Assembly: GCA_002784045.1 (NCBI GenBank)
Contig: PFJX01000146.1
Span: forward strand, 1 to 35,207
Direction of reading: 5' to 3'
DNA from: Hydrogenophilales bacterium CG_4_10_14_3_um_filter_63_21
GTDB lineage: Bacteria > Pseudomonadota > Gammaproteobacteria > Burkholderiales > Thiobacillaceae
DNA length: 35,207 bases
Under the pieces are notes generated by a model that saw only the letters and a list, made by a program, of their open reading frames with translations, was not told the origin of the DNA and ran no database searches. Numbering within the stretch: position 1 is the stretch's first letter; every line of letters starts with the position of its first letter. Positions 4,582 through 31,564 of the stretch are shown here, one piece after another. The position numbers were made by a program, and so were the translations under genes.

Positions 4582-5447
4582 GCGGTCACTTCCCGGTGGG
4601 GTCTCCCACGATGAAACGTTGATAACCGCCGGGAAGTTCAAACAGCTCCGCCCGCGTCGCGCGGGTTTCATGGCCTTGATAGACCCGGCTATGGCCGCAC
4701 CCAGTAGTGTATCGCCAGAGGTAACCTGCTGATATTCCAGCCCCGCCTCTCGACATCCAAGACCAGTGAACAGGGTGAGCGCAGCACCTCCAGCATGGCG
4801 TTCCAGGCTAATGCCTGATTGCCGGCCAGGCGGCGGAAACCGCGCAACAGGCACGCCTCGTCTTTCAGGATCGTTCAACCGCACCTGAACCGAGGCATTA
4901 CCGGCGCTAGTCTGATGTTCCTGGAAAAGCTTCCAGCCTGTCGACCAGGCCACCGTTTTCGCCACCGATTTCATCGACTGCGCGGGAATACCGGTGAGGC
5001 GAAGGTTTGAATCTCACACCGACTCTCCTTCTTCCCCAAAGCAAACCCCAAGTTTTCCGCTTCATACCGGCTGTGTTTCATGTGTTGCGAAAGTTCAATA
5101 GCCACCTGTGTTGATGCCCGGATGGCCTTTTTTTTCGTGAAGGTATATTAGAAATAGGTTATATTGCTAGCCAGTCAGGCGCCTAAGTAATTCTACCGCG
5201 TCATGACGGATGAACATCGACCGAATCTGGCGAATCTGGCAAATCTTGAACAATACTGCCGACATTCCACCAGGGTATTGTGTAGTTTTTATTATTTTTA
5301 ATATTTTTATTATTTTAATCAGTTGGTTACAGATTTACCCCGGCAGATTATGGCGGCATGGCAATTGCTTGATCTGAATGCCACCCAATTGGCGACCTTT
5401 ACCGCGCCATGAGGGGTGGGACATCAACCCAAAAGAGCCAACACATC
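4582..5447. other. Long intergenic region with decayed sequence
   Basis: About 866 bases follow fccB without a convincing intact gene. Small open frames lack ribosome sites and family resemblance. 4660-4960 on the minus strand shows integrase-like motifs in shifting frames (separate entry). 5280-5335 is a strikingly AT-rich tract (TTTTTATTATTTTTAATA and similar), and 5145-5165 has TATATT-like sequences that could be promoter elements for the small gene at 5448. No strong terminator for fccAB was found here. Confidence 0.5.
4660..4960 (-). pseudogene. Possible decayed tyrosine recombinase (integrase) fragment
   Basis: On the minus strand one frame reads ALTLFTGLGCREAGLEYQQV, which resembles the box I region of phage-type integrases (LLLFTGLRRxEAxGLRWxDV), including the Arg-x-x-Glu pattern. 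A neighbouring frame just upstream reads LRGFRRLAGNQALAWNAM, resembling the segment that precedes it in such enzymes. The match is short, spread over frames, and lacks the catalytic HxxR and Tyr boxes. It would be a relic only. It could equally be chance similarity in non-coding DNA. Confidence 0.25.
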
Positions 5448-5765: not shown

Positions 5766-6256
5766 TTCATCCCGAAATCGGAACGTCGGATCGTGGTATG
5801 GACATCCGCGCCGCACAGCGGGCGAAGCGTTAGAAATTGCCGGGTGCAGGTGTAATCACGGATTTCCAGGATGACCGGCCGGGTGGCGCCGAGCAGTGTC
5901 AGATTGCCGCTGGCTGAAACCGGCTTACCGTCCCTGAATGCCACTTCATTGGATACGAAGCGTATCTCCGGAAACTGAGCGGTGTTGAAGAAGTTGCTGC
6001 CCAGCAACTTCTGATTGAGGCCGTCGTGGCCAGTATCGCCGGAACTCGCGTCCACCCTCACTTCGATGTGGCTGGCCGGCCCGCTTGGGTCGAGCACCAC
6101 ACGCCCTTGGCTGCGGTTGAATTTGCCACGCATCAGGGAAACGCCGTGATGGCGAATCTCGAAACTGGGAAAGGTATGGCCGGGATCGAGGACAAAGTCT
6201 TCCGCCGCCAAGGCGGGAGCGCAGGCGCACAGCAGACAGGCGAATAGCTTTTTCAT
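5699..6256 (-). CDS. YceI-family periplasmic lipid-binding protein (second copy)
   Basis: This 185-aa protein has a signal peptide (MKKLFACLLCACAPALA) and the YceI lipocalin-like fold signature: LDPGHTFPSFEIRHHGVS at the start of the mature part, the FNRSQGRVVLDP strand, and late GTRPVILEIRDYTC-type strands. YceI proteins bind polyisoprenoids such as ubiquinone precursors in the periplasm. AAGGATTCGCC precedes ATG 6256. It is the last gene of a tightly packed minus-strand operon, 9 nt after another yceI paralogue and downstream of a cytochrome b561, a pairing common for this family. The specific ligand is unknown. Confidence 0.85.
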   Translation of the reverse strand: MKKLFACLLCACAPALAAEDFVLDPGHTFPSFEIRHHGVSLMRGKFNRSQGRVVLDPSGPASHIEVRVDASSGDTGHDGLNQKLLGSNFFNTAQFPEIRFVSNEVAFRDGKPVSASGNLTLLGATRPVILEIRDYTCTRQFLTLRPLCGADVHTTIRRSDFGMNYGIPLIGDEVKLVIEVEGFRE

Positions 6257-18512: not shown

Positions 18513-20968
<2,456 letters not shown>

Positions 20969-20972
<4 letters not shown>

Positions 20973-23167
20973 AATTGCCTGGACACTGGTCGACTCGGGC
21001 GCCCACCATCGATCGGGTGGTGCAGCTCGATGTCCGGCGCCTCGTGGCGCAGACTTTGCTGTTCGGCGTGGTGTTTTCCATTTTGCTGGCCATTCCAGTT
21101 GCGATCTATCAGCAGGCCGAAACGCGCAACCTCTTGAGCCTGCGTCAGGCGGAACAGGAACGGGTGATCAAGCTCTCGGCGCAAACCATCCACCAGGAAA
21201 TGGATGCCGTCTTGTCCGATCTGCGCTATCTGTCACAACACAACGAAATCAGAAGTTACCTGGAGAACAACGACCAAGGCCACCGTCGCAACCTTGCCCT
21301 TGAATATCTCGGCTTGGCCAGGCAGAAGCGCCTCTACGATCAGATCCGTTTCATCGGCCTCGACGGCATCGAGGAAGTGCGTGTCGATTTTGCCGGCGGC
21401 AAGCCGAAAATCGTTGCTGAGCAAGACCTGCAAGACAAACACGATCGCTACTATTTCCAGGAAACGCAGTGGCTCTCACCCGGGCAAATCTATGTGTCTC
21501 CCTTCGATTTGAACGTTGAACATGGCATCGTCGAACAGCCACTCAAGCCGGCCATACGCTTCGCCGTGCCGGTGGCCGATAGCCAGGGCCTGATACGCGG
21601 CATGGTGGTGCTCAATTATCTGGGACAGCGCCTGATCGACAAGCTGGGCCAGCTGACTGGGCAAACCGGCAAGGTCTGGCTACTTGACGCAGACGGACAA
21701 TGGCTCATCGGCCCCACGCGGCAAGACGCGTGGCGGTTCATGTTTCCACGACAACCACACGCCAATGCCCCCGCGCTTTTTGATGCCTTCAGGCAGCAAA
21801 CGATACTGGAAAAGTCAGGGCTCTATCGCAGCGAAGACAACTGGATACGGTTCGAGCGGATTTATCCGCTGACCGGCGGCATTCCCTATTCGAACATGCT
21901 CGACGTTGCCCAGCCAGAGGCGGCGGATCGCTATTACTGGACGCTGGCCGTCGCCCGCTCGCCGTCGCCCCCGCAGACATCGAATGCCTTCGTGCAGCGA
22001 GATCGGTGGGCGATTTACGGCACTTTATCGCTATTCGCCTTTCTGGCCGCCGCCGGGCTCGCCTTTGCGATCAATCGCAACCAGGCGCTGGCACAGTCAC
22101 TGGAAAAGGTGATCGACAGCCTGCCGGTCCTGGTCGCCTACGTCGATACGGAACAGCGCTACCGCTTCAACAACCAGGCCTACGAGGGATTTTTCGGACT
22201 AAGTCCAGGGCAAATCTACGGCAAGACGGTATGCGAGGTGCTGGATGAAGCCGCGTATCGGGAGGTGCGGCCCTATGTGGAACAGGCCCTAGCCGGGAAA
22301 CCGGTGACCTTCGAGCGTCAGTTCAGCTATGAGGGAGAGGGAATACGCGACATGGTGGTCACCTTTCTGCCAGACACTTCCCCGCAAGGCGAAGTGCGCG
22401 GTTTTTTCGTGGTGGCCAACGACGTCAGCCTGGTCAAACAATCAGAACAGCGCGAACGCCAGCACATGCAGGAACAGGCCCATGTTTCGCGTCTGGCCAG
22501 CATGGGTGAAATGGCCACCGGTATCGCCCATGAGATCAACCAGCCCCTGGCCGCCATTGCCATGTATAGCGCGGCAGGCGTGCGCACCCTGCAAGGCGAG
22601 TGTGACCGCGGCCAGATGAAGACCTGGCTTGAAGCGATCAACGCCCAGGCAAAACGAGCCAGCGAAATTGTGCAGCGGGTGCGCCATTTCATGCGGAAGG
22701 GTAAACCTCAATTCGGCCCGGTGGACCTGAATCAGGTTGCCCGCGAGGCGGCGGCACTCCTGCGTCATGAGGCCCAGTCGCAGGGCGTGGAGATCGCTTT
22801 GCAACTGGTGGGAAACCTGCCGCCGGTAGAAGGGGATGTCATCCTGCTGGAACAGGTGGTTTTCAATCTGCTGCGCAACGCCCTGGAGGCTTTGCTGCCG
22901 CAGCCCAACGGGCGCAGGATCACACTGCATACCTCGTTCGATGCGGAACAGGTCTATTTTGAGGTCGGGGATACCGGCCCCGGTGTTGATCCGGCTATCG
23001 CCGAACATGTTTTCGACTCATTCGTGAGCAGCAAACAGGAGGGAATGGGAATGGGCTTGGCCATCAGTCGTTCCATCATCGAAGCCCATGTTGGCAAATT
23101 GCGCTATACCGCCAATCCCGAGGGTGGCACCACCTTCATGTTCTGCCTGGCCCGGAAAGCTGTGTGA
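20969..23167 (+). CDS. Membrane-bound PAS sensor histidine kinase (FixL/DctB-like)
   Basis: From GTG 20969 (GTGA overlap) the product is about 732 aa. A first membrane helix (LLFGVVFSILLAIPVAIYQ), a periplasmic sensor region of about 300 residues resembling double-Cache sensors, and a second helix (GTLSLFAFLAAAGLAFAI) come first. A PAS domain (VIDSLPVLVAYVDTEQRYRF) is followed by an HK4-type kinase core: H in ATGIAHEINQPLAAIAM, NLLRNALEAL, GDTGPGVDP, GMGMGLAISRSI. The core resembles FixL, TodS and DctB. It immediately precedes and overlaps a FixJ-like regulator gene, its obvious partner. The upstream frame beginning at 20816 overlaps the hybrid kinase and is not credible as coding. Confidence 0.88.
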
Positions 23168-23553
23168 TGAAACCGCTATCGCCGTTCTCATCACCAACCG
23201 TTTATATCGTCGATGACGACGATGCGGTATGCGACGCGCTGGGCGCTTTGCTCGGCTCGGTACGTTTGGGTTGTGAAGCCTTCGCCACGGCGGAGAATTT
23301 CCTCGCCGTGGCGAATCGGGAGATGCGTGGTTGTCTCCTGCTCGACGTGCGCATGCCGGGCATGAGCGGGCTGGAACTGCAACGCAAACTTCAAGAACTG
23401 GGCATCATGTTGCCGGTCGTCATCATTACCGGGCACGGTGATGTAGCCATGGCGGTGCGGGCATTGAAGGCCGGTGCGGCCGACTTCATAGAGAAACCGT
23501 TCAACGAGCAGGATATGCTCGACCGCATCCAGAAATATCTGAAGCAAGACTAG
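23167..23553 (+). CDS. Response regulator receiver domain (FixJ-like, amber-truncated)
   Basis: ATG 23167 overlaps the kinase stop (TGATG). It encodes a 128-aa receiver with VDDDD, the phospho-acceptor in LLLDVRMPGMSG, TGHGD, and the Lys in FIEKPFNEQ. It ends at an in-frame TAG (23551-23553). The same frame then continues into a LuxR-type DNA-binding domain (next entry), so this is a FixJ/TodT-type regulator interrupted between its two domains. As written, only a stand-alone receiver would be made. It is co-transcribed with the FixL-like kinase. A GTG three bases earlier is also in frame. Confidence 0.8.
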   Translation: MKPLSPFSSPTVYIVDDDDAVCDALGALLGSVRLGCEAFATAENFLAVANREMRGCLLLDVRMPGMSGLELQRKLQELGIMLPVVIITGHGDVAMAVRALKAGAADFIEKPFNEQDMLDRIQKYLKQD

Positions 23554-25577: not shown

Positions 25578-25895
25578 TCACAAGTAAGCCTTGGCTTCTT
25601 CCCCCGGATTGGGCAGACCGGCAATACGCCAGGCTTCACGCGCATCGGGAAAAAGGCGGGTCATGCAGTCAGCGCCGAAGCCGCCCAGATGGCAGACGTG
25701 AGCCCAGGCGGGCAGTGCGCCCATGCGCCGATAGCTGGCGCGAAGGTTGCGTAGCAGGGCGATCTGCCGTTCATCCAGATCGCCTACGCCGTCCAGGCGG
25801 GCGATCCGCCTCGCTGTCGCCTCGTCCCAATCATCCAGTTCCCACATAAATCCGTCCGCGTCGAATGACGGTATTGCAATAGACAGGTTGTTCAT
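25578..25895 (-). CDS. DsrC/TusE-family protein lacking both C-terminal cysteines (RspA-like)
   Basis: This 105-aa protein matches the DsrC/TusE family: DGFMWELDDWDEATARRIA at the N-terminus, RNLRASYRRMGALP in the middle, and TRLFPDAREAWRIAGLPNP near the end. DsrC carries two redox cysteines on its flexible C-terminal arm (ACKIAGLPKPTGCV). Here the first is Trp (AWRIAG) and the last is replaced by the tail GEEAKAYL. Two other Cys exist (HVCHLGG, GADCM) at non-canonical places. It therefore cannot form the known trisulfide with sulfur and resembles the cysteine-less group for which the name RspA (regulatory) has been used. It lies 30 nt downstream of dsrA on the same strand with AAAGGAGAG before ATG 25895, implying an operon. 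Confidence 0.8.
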   Translation of the reverse strand: MNNLSIAIPSFDADGFMWELDDWDEATARRIARLDGVGDLDERQIALLRNLRASYRRMGALPAWAHVCHLGGFGADCMTRLFPDAREAWRIAGLPNPGEEAKAYL

Positions 25896-25925
25896 GACTA
25901 CTCTCCTTTGCTTGCTGCATATCCA

Positions 25926-27254
25926 TTACGCCGCCTGCTTCAAGTCGTTGCCGGAACGCTCCGCTTCGGCCGCCTTGCGCGCAAACCATTTCGCGGCTTC
26001 CTCGTCCCAGTCGTCGGTGCGGATGTAGGGATTGGTGCGGGGATGGATGATCATGTTGGGGTCAATCTCCACGCCGATGCCTTCCAGGAAGTTGACCAAA
26101 CCGATGCGCTCGATCATCTCGCCGGTGCGCTCGTGTTCCAGCGCATTCTCGGCGAAGAAATCGAGCACGCCGCGCGCCAGATCGTTGAGCTTCTCGAAGT
26201 CCGCATCCGACTCCAACTTCATGAACGGGATGATCACCGTGCCCATCGTAGCGCCGATCTTCAATACACCCTTGCCGCCGATCAGCACTGTTACGCCCTT
26301 GTCCTTGCCCGGCAGCAGCGCGCCCGGCATCACGTTCAGGCAGTGCATGCAGCGCACGCAGTTGTGGTTGTCGATCACCATCTCGCTATCCAGGCCGATG
26401 CGCAGCACGGATTCATGCACTTTCGCGGGGGTTCCGTAGTCGCGTAGCGTGATCGCCTTGGTCGGGCACAGGCTGACCACCATGTTCACCACGTCGTTGA
26501 TACTGTGGCTGTCCATCCATTCCTTGGCGACCGTCTCGTTGGTCTGGATGTTGTCACGCCAGGTGCCGATGGTGGCCATGTCGGAACGCTGGATGGCGTT
26601 GACGCAGTCGTTCGGGCAGCCGGAGAACTTGAATTTGAACTTGTACGGCAGGCTGGGCCGGTGCATGTCGTCGATGTTGTTGTTGATCACGGTGCGCAGG
26701 GCGCGCGCCTCGTCGTAATTGGACATTTCACAGCGCGCCGCGCCAACGCAGGACATCGAAGTACGCAGCGCCGGCCCGGCGCCACCCATGTCGAATCCCA
26801 GCGCATTGAGGTTATCGAACGCTTTCTGCACGTTTTCGCTCTTGATGCCCTGGAACATGATGTCGCCAGATTGGCCGTGGAAGGCGATCAGCCCGGAGCC
26901 GCCGGATTCGACCCAGGTATCCGCCAATTTGCGCAGCAGGTCAGAGGTGTAGTGCATGCCGGCCGGCGGTTGCACACGCAGCGTGTGGAATTCCGCCGCA
27001 TCGGGAAACAACGGCTTGCCGTTTTCGTCTTTCAGTTCGGTAAAGCGCGGAATGATGCCGCCACCATAACCGATAACACCGACCGTACCGCCTTTCCAGT
27101 AGCCTACCTTGGTCCGATACGAGGTTTCCAGTTGGCCGAGCAGACCCCCCATCATCGAGTTGTCCGCGGCAAGACGTTTGAGACCGGTAACGAAAGACGG
27201 CCACGCGCCGGATTCCAGTTCGTCAAGAAAGGGAGTGTCTGGCAATGGGTTCAT
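25926..27254 (-). CDS. dsrA: Reverse-type dissimilatory sulfite reductase, alpha subunit
   Basis: This 442-aa protein is the alpha subunit of siroheme sulfite reductase, which in sulfur oxidisers runs in reverse, oxidising DsrC-bound sulfur to sulfite in the cytoplasm. The start FLDELESGAWPSFVTGLKRL and end PRTNPYIRTDDWDEEAAKWF match DsrA. CVGAARC (CX5C) and CPNDC (CX3C) are the siroheme/[4Fe-4S] ligands, with the HRPSLPYKFKFKFSG core between. A ferredoxin insertion has NCVRCMHCLNVMP and LCPTKA. Sequence character fits the oxidative (rDsr) type. I chose ATG 27254 (AACAGGAGAAC upstream); the open frame extends to 27437 without homology. dsrB, normally next, is absent. The dsrA gene is divergent from sufB, whose product supports Fe-S supply. 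Confidence 0.9.
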   Translation of the reverse strand: MNPLPDTPFLDELESGAWPSFVTGLKRLAADNSMMGGLLGQLETSYRTKVGYWKGGTVGVIGYGGGIIPRFTELKDENGKPLFPDAAEFHTLRVQPPAGMHYTSDLLRKLADTWVESGGSGLIAFHGQSGDIMFQGIKSENVQKAFDNLNALGFDMGGAGPALRTSMSCVGAARCEMSNYDEARALRTVINNNIDDMHRPSLPYKFKFKFSGCPNDCVNAIQRSDMATIGTWRDNIQTNETVAKEWMDSHSINDVVNMVVSLCPTKAITLRDYGTPAKVHESVLRIGLDSEMVIDNHNCVRCMHCLNVMPGALLPGKDKGVTVLIGGKGVLKIGATMGTVIIPFMKLESDADFEKLNDLARGVLDFFAENALEHERTGEMIERIGLVNFLEGIGVEIDPNMIIHPRTNPYIRTDDWDEEAAKWFARKAAEAERSGNDLKQAA

Positions 27255-27599
27255 GAGATGTTCTCCTGTTGAAATTGGACGCAGTCGGCGCATGAAATGG
27301 TTAAACCCCTGTTTTCCGAGGCCTGAATAAAATCCTAGTAAATTACTCAAGTTTTGCCATCCTTTTTTTGGATGCGTCCGGCTGACAGCAGCCCGCTTCC
27401 AATCCGATCCCGATGAGCAGGCGTAACCAACTGCCAAATAGTTGACTATTTTTGTATGCTATAAAGAACGCATGCGGACAAGCACGTGTTGGCCTGTTCA
27501 ACTTTATCGCGAGGTTTTCATGCTGCGACCCACAATTACCAAGTGAGGCGCACCTGACCAGACCTTGCGAAAACGGGCGACACCCAAGAAGGAGGAAAC
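27255..27599. promoter_or_regulatory. Divergent dsrA / suf intergenic region
   Basis: This 345-base divergent region holds promoters for both transcripts. Besides the IscR-type site (27438-27462), it contains a short hairpin CATCC-T7-GGATG (27364-27376 area) and AT-rich sequence between 27330 and 27365 upstream of dsrA. sufB has AAGGAGGA right before its ATG. No small gene is supported here. Confidence 0.5.
27438..27462. promoter_or_regulatory. Putative IscR type 1 binding site upstream of suf
   Basis: The 25 bases match the E. coli IscR type 1 consensus (remembered as ATASYYGAC TRWWWYAGT CRRSTAT without the spaces) at 22 positions, including the complete first 15. It includes TTGACT, which could be a -35, and a palindromic AAATAGT-TG-ACTATTT overlaps it. 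It lies 138 nt upstream of sufB and 184 nt upstream of dsrA. Rrf2-family IscR represses Fe-S assembly genes by sensing Fe-S status. No iscR gene is in the window. Confidence 0.6.
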
Positions 27600-29039
27600 A
27601 TGAGCAACCTGGACTTGCAACGGCAGATCGACAGCGAATATCGCTGGGGCTTCGTCACCGACATCGAACAGGAGCCGTTCCCCCAAGGGCTGGACGAGTC
27701 GGTGATCCGGCGCATTTCGGCGCAAAAGGGTGAGCCGGCGTTTATGCTGGAATGGCGGCTGAAGGCTTATCAACACTGGCTGACACTGCACGAGCCAACT
27801 TGGGCGACGGTGCATCACCCGCCGATCGACTATCAGAAGATCTATTTCTACGCCGCACCCAAAATGGGCAACCGGCCGAAGAGCCTGGCGGAGGTGGACC
27901 CGCAACTGCTGGCGACCTATGAGAAATTGGGCATTCCGTTGCAGGAACGCGAGGCGCTGGCCGGTGTCGCGGTCGACGCGGTGTTCGATTCGGTGTCGGT
28001 GGCGACCACCTTCAAGGACAAGCTGGAGACGTTGGGCATCGTGTTCTGTTCCTTCTCGGAGGCGGTGCGCGAGCACCCGGAACTGGTGCGTCAGTATCTC
28101 GGCTCGGTGGTGCCGTACACCGACAACTTCTTTGCCAGCCTGAATTCGGCGGTATTTTCCGACGGCTCCTTCGTCTATGTGCCGAAGGGCGTCAACTGCC
28201 CGATGGAGCTGTCAACCTATTTCCGCATCAACGCCAGCAACAGCGGCCAGTTCGAGCGCACGCTGATCATCGCCGACGAGGGCGCCAGCGTGAGTTATCT
28301 GGAAGGCTGTACCGCGCCCCGGCGCGACGAGAACCAGTTGCATGCCGCCGTGGTCGAGTTGATCGCGCTGAAGGACGCCCGCATCAAGTATTCCACGGTA
28401 CAGAACTGGTATCCCGGCGACGCCGAAGGGCGCGGCGGCATCTACAACTTCGTCACCAAGCGCGGCGAGTGCCGCGGCGACAACGCGCACATCTCCTGGA
28501 CCCAGGTGGAAACCGGATCGGCCATCACCTGGAAGTATCCGAGCTGCATCCTGCGTGGCGACAACTCGGTCGGCGAGTTCTATTCCGTGGCGCTGACCAA
28601 CCATCATCAGCAGGCCGACACTGGTAGCAAGATGATCCATATCGGCCGCAACACGCACAGCACCATCGTTTCCAAAGGCATTTCTGCCGGCCACGCCAGC
28701 AATGCCTATCGCGGCCTGGTCAAGGTGCTGGCCGGGGCGGATAACGCCCGCAACCACACCCGCTGCGACTCGCTGCTGATGGGGCCTGATTGCGCCGCGC
28801 ACACCTTCCCGTACATCGAGGTGAAGAACCCGAGCGCGCGGGTCGAACACGAGGCGTCAACCAGCAAGATCGGCGAAGACCAGTTGTTCTACCTGCGCAG
28901 CCGCGGCTTGAGCGAGGAAGACGCGGTCAACCTGATCGTCAACGGCTTCTGCAAGGAAGTGTTCAAGGAACTGCCCATGGAGTTCGCGGTGGAGGCGCAG
29001 AAATTGCTGGCCGTCAGCCTCGAAGGCGCCGTGGGATGA
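27600..29039 (+). CDS. sufB: Fe-S cluster assembly scaffold protein SufB
   Basis: This 479-aa protein is the scaffold of the SufBC2D complex, where Fe-S clusters are built. Conserved blocks include [40 protein letters not shown], and the C-terminal [10 protein letters not shown] with the Cys equivalent to E. coli C405. [22 protein letters not shown] contains the catalytic Glu. The final [14 protein letters not shown] is typical. AAGGAGGA precedes ATG 27600. It heads an operon sufB-C-D-U-T-Rieske, with overlapping or short junctions throughout. Confidence 0.95.
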
Positions 29040-29055
29040 GCAAGGAGTACACACC

Positions 29056-29835
29056 ATGCTGCAAATCCGCAATCTGCATGTCGCCATCGGCGGCAAACCC
29101 ATTCTCAAGGGCATCGACCTGACCATTCATCCCGGCGAAGTGCATGCCATCATGGGGCCGAATGGCTCCGGCAAAAGCACGCTGGCGCAGGTTCTGGCCG
29201 GGCGTGACGGCTATGACATTACCGCCGGCAGCGTGCAATACCTGGAACGCGATCTGCTGCCGCTGACGCCGGAAGAACGCGCCCGCGCCGGCATCTTCCT
29301 GGCCTTTCAGTACCCGCTGGAGATTCCCGGCGTCGCCAACGTGCAACTGCTGCGCACGGCCCTCAACGGCCAGCGCCGCTCACGCGGCGAAGCCGAGATG
29401 GATGCCATCGATTTTCTCGACTATGTAAAGGACAAGCTGGCTCTGCTCGGCATGGACGACAGCTTCCTGTATCGCTCGGTCAACGAGGGCTTCTCCGGCG
29501 GCGAGAAAAAACGTAACGAGATACTGCAGATGGCCGTACTGGAACCACGCCTGGCGATCCTGGACGAGACAGACTCGGGCCTCGACATCGACGCTTTGCA
29601 CCTCGTCGCCGATGGCGTCAACAGCCTGCGCAGACCGCAGCGCGCCATCATTCTGGTGACCCACTATCAACGCCTGTTGAACTTCATCGTGCCGCACCAG
29701 GTGCATGTTCTGGCCGGTGGCCGCATCGTCCGCTCCGGCGGTCGTGAACTGGCCCTGGAACTGGAAGCAAAGGGTTACGCCTGGCTCAGTGAGGAGATAA
29801 GCGACGCAGCCGATTTTATGGAGACTTACCTATGA
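29056..29835 (+). CDS. sufC: Fe-S cluster assembly ATPase SufC
   Basis: This 259-aa ABC-type ATPase drives conformational change in the SufBC2D scaffold. Walker A GPNGSGKST, Q-loop LAFQYPLEIPGV, signature FSGGEKKRNEI, Walker B LAILDETDSGLDIDAL, and the H-loop THYQRLLNFI are all present. The SufC-specific ETDSGLD motif confirms identity. AAGGAG lies upstream; its stop overlaps the sufD ATG by four bases (ATGA). Confidence 0.96.
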   Translation: MLQIRNLHVAIGGKPILKGIDLTIHPGEVHAIMGPNGSGKSTLAQVLAGRDGYDITAGSVQYLERDLLPLTPEERARAGIFLAFQYPLEIPGVANVQLLRTALNGQRRSRGEAEMDAIDFLDYVKDKLALLGMDDSFLYRSVNEGFSGGEKKRNEILQMAVLEPRLAILDETDSGLDIDALHLVADGVNSLRRPQRAIILVTHYQRLLNFIVPHQVHVLAGGRIVRSGGRELALELEAKGYAWLSEEISDAADFMETYL

Positions 29836-31091
29836 TCCCCCCCACTGCCTATCTCGACGCCCTGTCCCACATTGACGCTCCAAGCAACATCACTGCAGCG
29901 CGTCAGGATTTCCTCGGGAAATTTTTGCAAGCCGGTTTGCCCGACAGCCATCAGGAAGACTGGCGCTATACCTCCCTGGCGCATCTGGAGCGGATGCCGC
30001 TACACGCCCCGGAAGCAATGCCCGAGACGCTGCCAGCGCTGGAGGACTATCCAGGCGCCTTGCTGGCCTATTCGGATGATCGCCTGGTCTGGCAGGACAC
30101 GACTTTGCCCGCAACCGTGCTGAGTACGCTCTCAGATGCAATTGGCAGCGGCATGCCGGCAGCATTCGGCAGCCTTGCCGGCAACGGCTCTCTGACCCAG
30201 CTCAACGCCGCCCTCTGGCGCGAAGGCGCCTGCCTACGCGTGCCAGCCGGAGAGCGCCTGCGCCAGCCGGTGTTCCTCCGCTTCGCCGCCGCCGAACCCG
30301 ATGCGATGCTGTATCCGCGCGTCTTCATCCACATGGCCGTAGGTTCGGACGCCATCCTGGTGGAAAATTTTCTCGGCGATCCCGGCATCGAATACTGGCA
30401 AAACCCGGTCACGGAAATCATCCTGGAAGCCGGCGCGCGACTGACGCATCTGCGCATCATCGAAGACAGCAAGCTGGCCACCCACACCGGCCTCACTGCC
30501 GTGCATCAGGCCAGCGACAGCAGCTACCGCGCGCTCAACCTGACGTTGGGTGGGCAGGTTGCCCGCCACGAACTCAAACTCACGCTTGCGGGCGCCGGCG
30601 CGGAAGCCCGACTCGATGGGGTATTCATCGTCGAGGGCCGACGCAGCGCCGAGCAACATCTGCGCATCGTCCACCTGGCGCCGCGTGGCAACAGCCGCAC
30701 CTTCTACCGCGGCCTGGCCGACGGGCGCGGACGCGGCGTGTTCGATGGCCGCGTGGAAGTGCGCGCGCATGCCGACGGCAGCGACGCTCAACAATCCAGC
30801 CGCAACCTGCTGCTCTCACCGCACGCTGAGATCGATGCCAAACCGCAACTGGAAATCTACGCCGACGACGTGAAATGCAGTCACGGCGCTACCGTTGGCA
30901 GCCTGGACGAAGACGCCCTGTTCTACCTGCGCAGCCGCGGCATCGACAGCGAAACAGCCCGCCGGCTGCTATTGGAAGCCTTCGTCGGCGAGGCGCTGGG
31001 GCTGCTGGATGACACCGGCCTGCGCGACTGGATGATGCCGCGGCTGTTGGCCCGCATGCCGCGCAGCCACTCAGAGGAATCCCGGCCATGA
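29832..31091 (+). CDS. sufD: Fe-S cluster assembly protein SufD
   Basis: This 419-aa protein is the SufB paralogue in the assembly complex. N-terminal QEDWRYTSL is the usual start region. The C-terminal core has HLRIVHLAPRGNSRTFYRG, QQSSRNLLLSPHAEIDAKPQLEIYADDVKCSHGAT and [15 protein letters not shown], including the Cys and His at the interface with SufB. The start overlaps sufC and the stop overlaps the sufU ATG (ATGA), so sufS, often placed between these genes, is absent here. Confidence 0.94.
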   Translation: MIPPTAYLDALSHIDAPSNITAARQDFLGKFLQAGLPDSHQEDWRYTSLAHLERMPLHAPEAMPETLPALEDYPGALLAYSDDRLVWQDTTLPATVLSTLSDAIGSGMPAAFGSLAGNGSLTQLNAALWREGACLRVPAGERLRQPVFLRFAAAEPDAMLYPRVFIHMAVGSDAILVENFLGDPGIEYWQNPVTEIILEAGARLTHLRIIEDSKLATHTGLTAVHQASDSSYRALNLTLGGQVARHELKLTLAGAGAEARLDGVFIVEGRRSAEQHLRIVHLAPRGNSRTFYRGLADGRGRGVFDGRVEVRAHADGSDAQQSSRNLLLSPHAEIDAKPQLEIYADDVKCSHGATVGSLDEDALFYLRSRGIDSETARRLLLEAFVGEALGLLDDTGLRDWMMPRLLARMPRSHSEESRP

Positions 31092-31564
31092 ATCCGCAAA
31101 CTCGCGATCTCTACGAACAAGTGATCCTGGAGCACAACCGCCACCCGCGCCATTACCCAGAAAACCCGCCAGGCAGCAACCATCACGCGCACGGCTTCAA
31201 TCCCCTGTGCAATGACGAAGTCAGCGTCCATCTCAAGGTCGAAGATGGTGTGATCCAGGCCGTGGGCTTCGAAGGCGCCGGTTGCGCCGTGTCGATGGCC
31301 TCGGCTTCGATGATGGCCGAGGCCATCCAGGGCAAGACCCTGGCGGAAGTCAGCGGTTTGTTCGCCAAAGTCCACGCCATGCTGGCCGAGGATGGCTCGG
31401 CGGAAGGGGTGGGCAAGCTCAAGGTGCTCGCCGGCGTAAAGGAATTTCCGATGCGGGTGAAGTGCGCCACGCTGCCCTGGCACACGCTGCAAGCTGCGCT
31501 GGAAAACCACGCCGACACCGTCAGTACGGAAGAAGCCGCGCCGTCTTGTCCACAACCGGCATGA
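31088..31564 (+). CDS. sufU: SufU-type Fe-S assembly scaffold/sulfur transfer protein
   Basis: This 158-aa protein belongs to the IscU/SufU family. The three ligand cysteines are seen in NPLCND, GAGCAVSMASASMM and VKCATLPWHTL. The region between the second and third Cys holds the extra loop typical of SufU rather than IscU. The first motif reads CND instead of the usual CGD, keeping the Asp. SufU in Gram-positives accepts sulfur from SufS through zinc; which enzyme supplies sulfur here is unknown because no desulfurase gene lies beside it. Confidence 0.88.
   Translation: MNPQTRDLYEQVILEHNRHPRHYPENPPGSNHHAHGFNPLCNDEVSVHLKVEDGVIQAVGFEGAGCAVSMASASMMAEAIQGKTLAEVSGLFAKVHAMLAEDGSAEGVGKLKVLAGVKEFPMRVKCATLPWHTLQAALENHADTVSTEEAAPSCPQPA

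What the first reader, a model, noticed from the sequence alone, without database searches (positions are those of the whole stretch)
25578..27254. dsrA paired with a cysteine-less DsrC-like gene and no dsrB
rDsrA is normally encoded as dsrAB followed by dsrEFHC and others, and the enzyme is an alpha2beta2 complex. Here a full-length dsrA with all siroheme/Fe-S ligands is followed 30 nt later by a DsrC-family protein in which both redox cysteines of the C-terminal arm are replaced (AWRIAG and GEEAKAYL), then by convergent unrelated genes. This could be a second, specialised DsrA module (sensing or regulatory, with RspA-like partner), or a split dsr locus whose dsrB lies elsewhere.
Basis: partly seen in the sequence, partly recalled or inferred. 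Interest (0 to 1): 0.8.

Follow-up and report, generated by a model that had tools for sequence, protein, structure and literature searches.

The report
Extra solo sulfite-reductase alpha gene
A sulfur-oxidising bacterium carries a second copy of one half of its key sulfur enzyme without the other half; such solo copies were already known in a relative, but this one, like many others, sits behind what looks like a switch for the cell's iron-sulfur sensor.

Summary
Observation confirmed: 25926-27254(-) is an intact rDsrA gene with no dsrB beside it, followed 30 nt later by a DsrC-fold gene lacking both tail cysteines. The genome (Thiobacillaceae neighbours) has one ordinary dsrA-dsrB cluster elsewhere, so this is a true second, solo dsrA (76-77% identical), not a relocated one. 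Solo dsrA is already in print for Thiobacillus denitrificans (Loy 2009, citing Beller 2006). Here at least 30 of 117 family genomes hold one, in four places of the DsrA tree; no genome shows two complete dsrB genes. Cofactor and substrate residues are kept and selection is purifying. The DsrC-like gene is not a conserved partner: it adjoins a solo dsrA in only two genomes. New is the control region: in three of four groups, the window's included, an IscR type-1-like site lies within 150 nt of the start (31 of 31 scored), against 0 of 77 canonical dsrA and 0 of 6 in the fourth group. Two such sites fill the gap between dsrA2 and the divergent sufBCDU genes. Best reading: an Fe-S-status-controlled alternative alpha subunit that borrows the single DsrB. 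IscR binding and the pairing are inferred, not shown.

The parts
25926..27254 (-). solo dsrA (dsrA2), complete rDsrA alpha subunit, 442 aa
25578..25895 (-). DsrC-family gene without the two tail cysteines, conserved GEEAKAY tail; incidental neighbour, possibly co-transcribed here
27330..27354 (.). IscR type-1-like site proximal to dsrA2 (19 of 25 consensus matches; iscR-trained matrix 19.9)
27438..27462 (.). IscR type-1-like site on the sufB side of the gap (22 of 25; matrix 18.9)
27600..29039 (+). sufB, divergent from dsrA2
29056..29835 (+). sufC
29832..31091 (+). sufD
31088..31564 (+). sufU

Best explanation
dsrA2 encodes an alternative alpha subunit of reverse dissimilatory sulfite reductase, transcribed on its own under an IscR-type (Rrf2-family) Fe-S-status switch shared with iscR and, in this genome, with the divergent suf genes. 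Its product assembles with the DsrB made from the single main dsr operon, giving a second form of the enzyme when Fe-S clusters are short or damaged and isc/suf are derepressed. Shown by sequence: a second intact, constrained alpha gene; one dsrB; IscR-type sites at the solo genes and at iscR. Inferred: that IscR (or the SUF regulator) binds there, the direction of control, pairing with DsrB, and the benefit. Why alpha and not beta is duplicated is not explained.
For: One dsrB over the cut-off and two dsrA in the genome; at least 30 of 117 family genomes with a solo dsrA, while dsrB gives one match per genome in 96 of 98 matching genomes. Eight cluster cysteines in all 36 solo copies and in 2 undecided ones checked; substrate-binding positions kept in 39 of 39 solo or undecided rows (K205 38 of 39, one gap). 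dN/dS 0.06-0.17 in 10 solo pairs. About 190 of 194 canonical invariants kept. A matrix trained only on 17 iscR promoters finds a site within 150 nt upstream in c1 10 of 10, c3 20 of 20 scored and L129, against 0 of 77 canonical dsrA above -1.4. Own IscR identified by TIGR02010 with its own site 66 nt upstream. Solo dsrA is divergent from sufB in the window and from a SUF regulator (TIGR02944) before sufB in G021 and G012. Structures place the functional siroheme cluster on DsrB, with DsrA's own site inactive (PMC10229431, passages), so DsrA needs a DsrB. Phages carry dsrA but no dsrB was found in them (PMC8190135, passages).
Against: No expression, binding or complex data. Solo group c2 (6 of 6) lacks the site, so Fe-S control is not general to solo dsrA. 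16 of 77 canonical clusters score 7 or more within 300 nt, mostly at about 235-250 nt upstream, so IscR-like control may not be special to solo genes. Sites inside one group are one inherited event, so the independent cases are two or three. Own-genome consensus search at 3 mismatches gives only 5 places, some near-perfect palindromes that may be terminators. Three Rrf2 proteins exist in the genome, so the regulator is not certain.
Confidence: 0.5

Rival explanations
1. Plain dosage: DsrA2 is equivalent to DsrA1 and only adds alpha subunits; the IscR-like site has little consequence.
For: Residues and invariants kept; phages also supply dsrA alone.
Against: The copy has diverged to 76-77% identity, has its own conserved control site and group-wide changes such as Asp33 (78 of 78 canonical; replaced in 19 of 39 solo or undecided).
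Confidence: 0.2
2. DsrA2 works without DsrB, as a homo-oligomer with its own siroheme chemistry, or with another partner.
For: No linked dsrB; complete cluster cysteines and substrate residues. Fsr shows that a homo-oligomeric sulfite reductase of this fold exists (PMC10229431, passages).
Against: DsrA's own centre is described as inactive; Ser129, at the position of the conserved DsrA Thr as I map it, is the same in 39 solo or undecided and 78 canonical rows; invariants kept over the whole length, N-terminal part included.
Confidence: 0.12
3. Sensing or regulatory module: DsrA2 acts with the cysteine-less DsrC-like protein as an RspA-type regulator.
For: 30-nt gap, likely co-transcription in the window; same-strand neighbours in G012.
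Against: Only two genomes share the pair; the DsrC-like family occurs in 71 of 117 genomes and in the 15 other loci read lies apart from dsrA; G021 has dsrA2 without it.
Confidence: 0.08
4. A redundant copy on the way to loss.
For: G015 holds only a decayed remnant; patchy presence, at least 7 of 23 in the window's genus.
Against: Open frames; dN/dS 0.06-0.17 in all 10 solo pairs tested (12 canonical pairs 0.006-0.11, so somewhat relaxed); conserved promoter site.
Confidence: 0.05

Closest known systems
Solo dsrA copies of Thiobacillus denitrificans (Loy et al. 2009, PMC2702494, passage seen; Beller et al. 2006, not held)
   Same: Extra dsrA not linked with dsrB, beside a canonical dsrAB in the same genome; same family.
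   Different: The window's copy belongs to a separate group (c1), beside the canonical dsrA of another genus in the tree; next to suf genes and a DsrC-like gene.
Phage-borne dsrA (PMC8190135, passages seen)
   Same: dsrA (with dsrC) carried without dsrB.
   Different: One viral scan found two relatives, 56-59% identical, one of them with a dsrB; the window's copy is chromosomal and groups with Thiobacillaceae DsrA.
DsrC / TusE / RspA family (RspA name recalled)
   Same: DsrC fold by Pfam; tail cysteines absent as in the RspA type.
   Different: Conserved tail GLPNPGEEAKAY (exact in 13 of 17 aligned, near-exact in 16) and two mid-protein cysteines in 15 of 17; below the NCBIfam cut-off.
IscR regulon (type-1 sites)
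   Same: 25-bp site like those at iscR of the same genomes; best sites score as high as bound Pseudomonas sites of 68-76% identity (PMC6599224, passage).
   Different: Target is a sulfur-oxidation enzyme subunit; binding untested.

Membership tests
Reverse-type DsrA (alpha subunit) | TIGR02064 over its curated cut-off | tested here: met
   483 against 392.85 bits
Reverse-type DsrA (alpha subunit) | siroheme-[4Fe-4S] and ferredoxin-domain cysteines | tested here: met
   8 of 8 in the window copy and in the solo copies checked
Reverse-type DsrA (alpha subunit) | substrate residues R, KxKxK, R, HeR (motif from PMC8190135) | tested here: met
   R93, R164, K205/207/209, H374, R376 (positions mapped by me)
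DsrAB alpha2beta2 enzyme | dsrB next to dsrA | tested here: not met
   no dsrB in the window; one on contig C33
DsrAB alpha2beta2 enzyme | DsrA2 binds DsrB | not testable with these tools
Functional DsrC | two redox cysteines of the C-terminal arm | tested here: not met
   Trp and a cysteine-free longer tail
DsrC superfamily | Pfam DsrC over its cut-off | tested here: met
   48.3 against 24.9 bits; NCBIfam cut-off not reached
Conserved DsrA + DsrC-like module | recurrence of the pair in relatives | tested here: not met
   2 of 36 distinct solo dsrA
IscR regulon | type-1 site near the start codon | tested here: met
   19 of 25 and matrix 19.9 for the window
IscR regulon | IscR binds and regulates | not testable with these tools
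   needs a gel shift and transcripts
Pseudogene | broken frame or relaxed selection | tested here: not met
   open frame; dN/dS 0.107 for window against G021

The most novel reading that the evidence does not exclude
Thiobacillaceae repeatedly evolved an IscR-governed spare alpha subunit, so that the sulfite reductase changes its alpha subunit on a shared beta according to Fe-S supply: a stress form of a core energy enzyme made by swapping one subunit.
Probability: 0.4. Interest if true: 0.68.

Novelty: new variant of a known kind. Interest (0 to 1): 0.52.

Why it matters
Solo dsrA copies have been noted without explanation since at least 2009 and complicate dsrA as a marker gene, since counting dsrA overstates dsrAB. 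A shared Fe-S-sensor-like site gives many of them a testable control and would tie energy-yielding sulfur oxidation to Fe-S homeostasis. It also bears on the question raised in PMC8190135 of why dsrB has not been found in phages that carry dsrA. In the held library I found no paper that links IscR with dsrA (searches; the IscR passages of three papers listed were opened and concern other things).

Tried and rejected
Split or relocated dsr locus: rejected, the dsrB elsewhere has its own dsrA. Assembly break: unlikely, dsrA2 and the DsrC-like gene are same-strand neighbours in G012 too; solo copies of the handle genomes lie at least 2,239 nt from the downstream contig end. Phage origin: one viral scan gave 2 relatives, 56-59% identical; not supported. 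FNR-like TTGA-N6-TCAA: none upstream of any group. An apparent frameshift in both G050 dsrA copies is N-masked sequence; both were dropped. Nine partial or masked DsrA rows were dropped before the tree. One-origin test for groups c1 and c3: the protein tree does not reject it (p-AU 0.161; one search was the unfinished first run), the codon DNA tree on 43 chosen rows does (p-AU 0.005); separate origin is likely, not certain. The first iscR matrix had 5 of 17 promoters in the wrong orientation; redone, which alone is used. In one search some DsrC reference strings were translated on the wrong strand (the loci of C150:6573, C55 and C2); hits to them are ignored.

Full report
What is there. On the minus strand at 25926-27254 lies a complete rDsrA gene (TIGR02064 483 bits against a cut-off of 392.85). 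The DsrC-like gene 25578-25895 follows after 30 nt. Its upstream arm cysteine is Trp and the penultimate cysteine is gone, in a tail reading GLPNPGEEAKAYL. Divergent from dsrA2 are sufB, sufC, sufD and sufU.

Second copy, not a split locus. The window is contig C107 of a 3.03-Mb assembly rated 99.92% complete. Contig C33 carries the ordinary cluster: dsrA (77% identical; 75.6% over 431 aligned columns), dsrB, and further on a two-cysteine dsrC; the names dsrL, dsrP and dsrN there are my reading of the ORFs. dsrB is over its cut-off once; DsrC-family matches number seven. Named relatives in GTDB contigs are mostly Thiobacillus, Hydrogenophilales and unplaced betaproteobacterial bins; no call names the window's own taxon, and Thiobacillaceae is my inference.

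How common. Of 117 family genomes 103 match DsrA at E 1e-60 and 98 match DsrB. dsrB gives two matches only in G105 (two pieces at contig edges) and G137 (one full copy plus an edge piece, so a second copy there is not excluded). I fetched flanks for the genomes with more than one dsrA and for some others, not for every genome. In these, 30 of the 117 hold a solo dsrA; one search lists 31 genomes, the extra one, G050, being from another family with masked copies. Of the 30, all but G104 (82% complete) have a dsrB match. Among the 80 loci kept (a capped list), 15 had no dsrB within 1.5 kb downstream. Loy et al. 2009 state that T. denitrificans has, besides its dsrAB, two dsrA copies unexpectedly not linked with a dsrB, citing Beller 2006 (passage). 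The oddity is therefore known.

Origins. Of 146 full-length copies (94 with dsrB, 49 solo, 3 undecidable near a contig end; 9 partial rows dropped), 117 distinct ones were kept: 78, 36 and 3. The quick protein tree needs at least five changes of the solo label. Solo copies form c1 (the window's: 9 solo and one undecided, beside the canonical dsrA of genus g11), c2 (6) and c3 (20 and one undecided), both Thiobacillus, and L129 alone. A codon DNA tree of 43 chosen rows gives c1, c2 and c3 each as one clade at 100 and rejects c1 with c3 as one clade (p-AU 0.005); the protein test does not (p-AU 0.161). The DsrB tree keeps the g11 cluster near its usual kin, so the nearest outside relatives of c1 are alpha subunits that do pair with a DsrB.

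Constraint. All eight cluster cysteines are in the 36 solo copies and the two undecided ones checked; substrate residues are kept. Mean losses among 194 positions invariant in canonical DsrA are 3.4 (c1), 1.5 (c2) and 1.5 (c3); 11 canonical rows tested the same way lose 0-5. Ten solo pairs have dN/dS 0.06-0.17, twelve canonical pairs 0.006-0.11. Asp33, in 78 of 78 canonical copies, is replaced in 19 of 39 solo or undecided ones, over three groups; its meaning is unknown.

The DsrC-like neighbour. 71 of 117 genomes have a match at E 1e-12. Of 17 aligned, 13 end in the exact GLPNPGEEAKAY motif and 16 nearly so; 15 keep two mid-protein cysteines. In 15 other loci read, neighbours vary (gyrA-, mutY- and ilvE-like by eye) and none is dsrA. 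Only the window and G012 pair it with a solo dsrA.

The regulatory clue. The published IscR type-1 consensus (PMC6599224, passage) was scored in the 150 nt before the start codon. At 18 of 25 or more: c1 9 of 10, c3 19 of 20 (one of 21 lacks upstream sequence), L129 1 of 1, c2 0 of 6; canonical dsrA, in 120 nt, 0 of 77. An independent test used a matrix trained only on the best site of each of 17 iscR promoters (own genome plus 16 relatives, in all of which IscR was found). Scores: c1 12.2 to 26.9 (10 of 10), c3 14.5 to 29.6 (20 of 20), L129 26.9; c2 at most -6.4 (6); canonical at most -1.4 (77). Of 1,011 other ORF upstreams 12 score 11.4 or more, some being the same sites seen from the divergent gene or a truncated solo dsrA. 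In the whole window three sites score over 8; two lie in the dsrA2-sufB gap (27330-27354 and 27438-27462), the third at 5242-5266. In G021 and G012 a SUF regulator (TIGR02944) lies between dsrA2 and sufB. A c3-like pattern with one mismatch gives 0 to 2 places per strand in each of 14 genomes, control 0, and in seven of them one is the solo dsrA.

Against uniqueness. 16 of 77 canonical clusters score 7 or more within 300 nt, mostly 235-250 nt upstream; genes of DsrC paralogues also carry such sites; group c2 has none. Sites within one group are one inherited event.

Mechanism. Best reading: holo-IscR holds solo dsrA down; when Fe-S clusters run short it is released with isc and suf, and DsrA2 joins DsrB from the main operon. 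In E. coli the holo form prefers type-1 sites; the direction here is inferred, and IscR can also activate suf (reference title). DsrA needs DsrB because the functional centre is described on DsrB (PMC10229431, passages). The phage case, dsrA without dsrB (PMC8190135, passages), suggests alpha is the subunit worth adding.

Limits. No structure, complex, binding or expression result was obtained. Which Rrf2 protein acts (three in the genome) is open.

Noticed in passing
L054 about 5923-6071 (G015:C22): Short in-frame scraps of a dsrA2-like gene, a decayed solo dsrA.
   Followed up: partly
window 20816-23553: Sensor kinase and FixJ-like response regulator (named by eye); similar genes and a 94-aa ORF lie beside the DsrC-like gene of G067 (L215) where no dsrA was found.
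   Followed up: no
G000:C150:6955-6979; G017:C27:591-615 (L243); G022:C21:23298-23322 (L242): IscR-like sites just upstream of DsrC-paralogue genes, two of them cysteine-poor in the tail as far as read.
   Followed up: partly
L228 (viral contig): Two dsrC-like matches followed by dsrA with no dsrB in the 10 kb held; 59% identical to DsrA2.
   Followed up: partly
L049 (G010): Solo dsrA lies between genes that look like nifV and nifS/nifU/iscA (by eye), again Fe-S or nitrogenase assembly.
   Followed up: no
DsrA position 33: Asp in 78 of 78 canonical copies, replaced in 19 of 39 solo or undecided copies over three groups.
   Followed up: no
L100, L109, L112, L151, L157, L172 upstream: Group c2 solo dsrA share another upstream element rich in ATCGTTTGTTAA / AAACTATCTTT, unlike IscR sites.
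   Followed up: no
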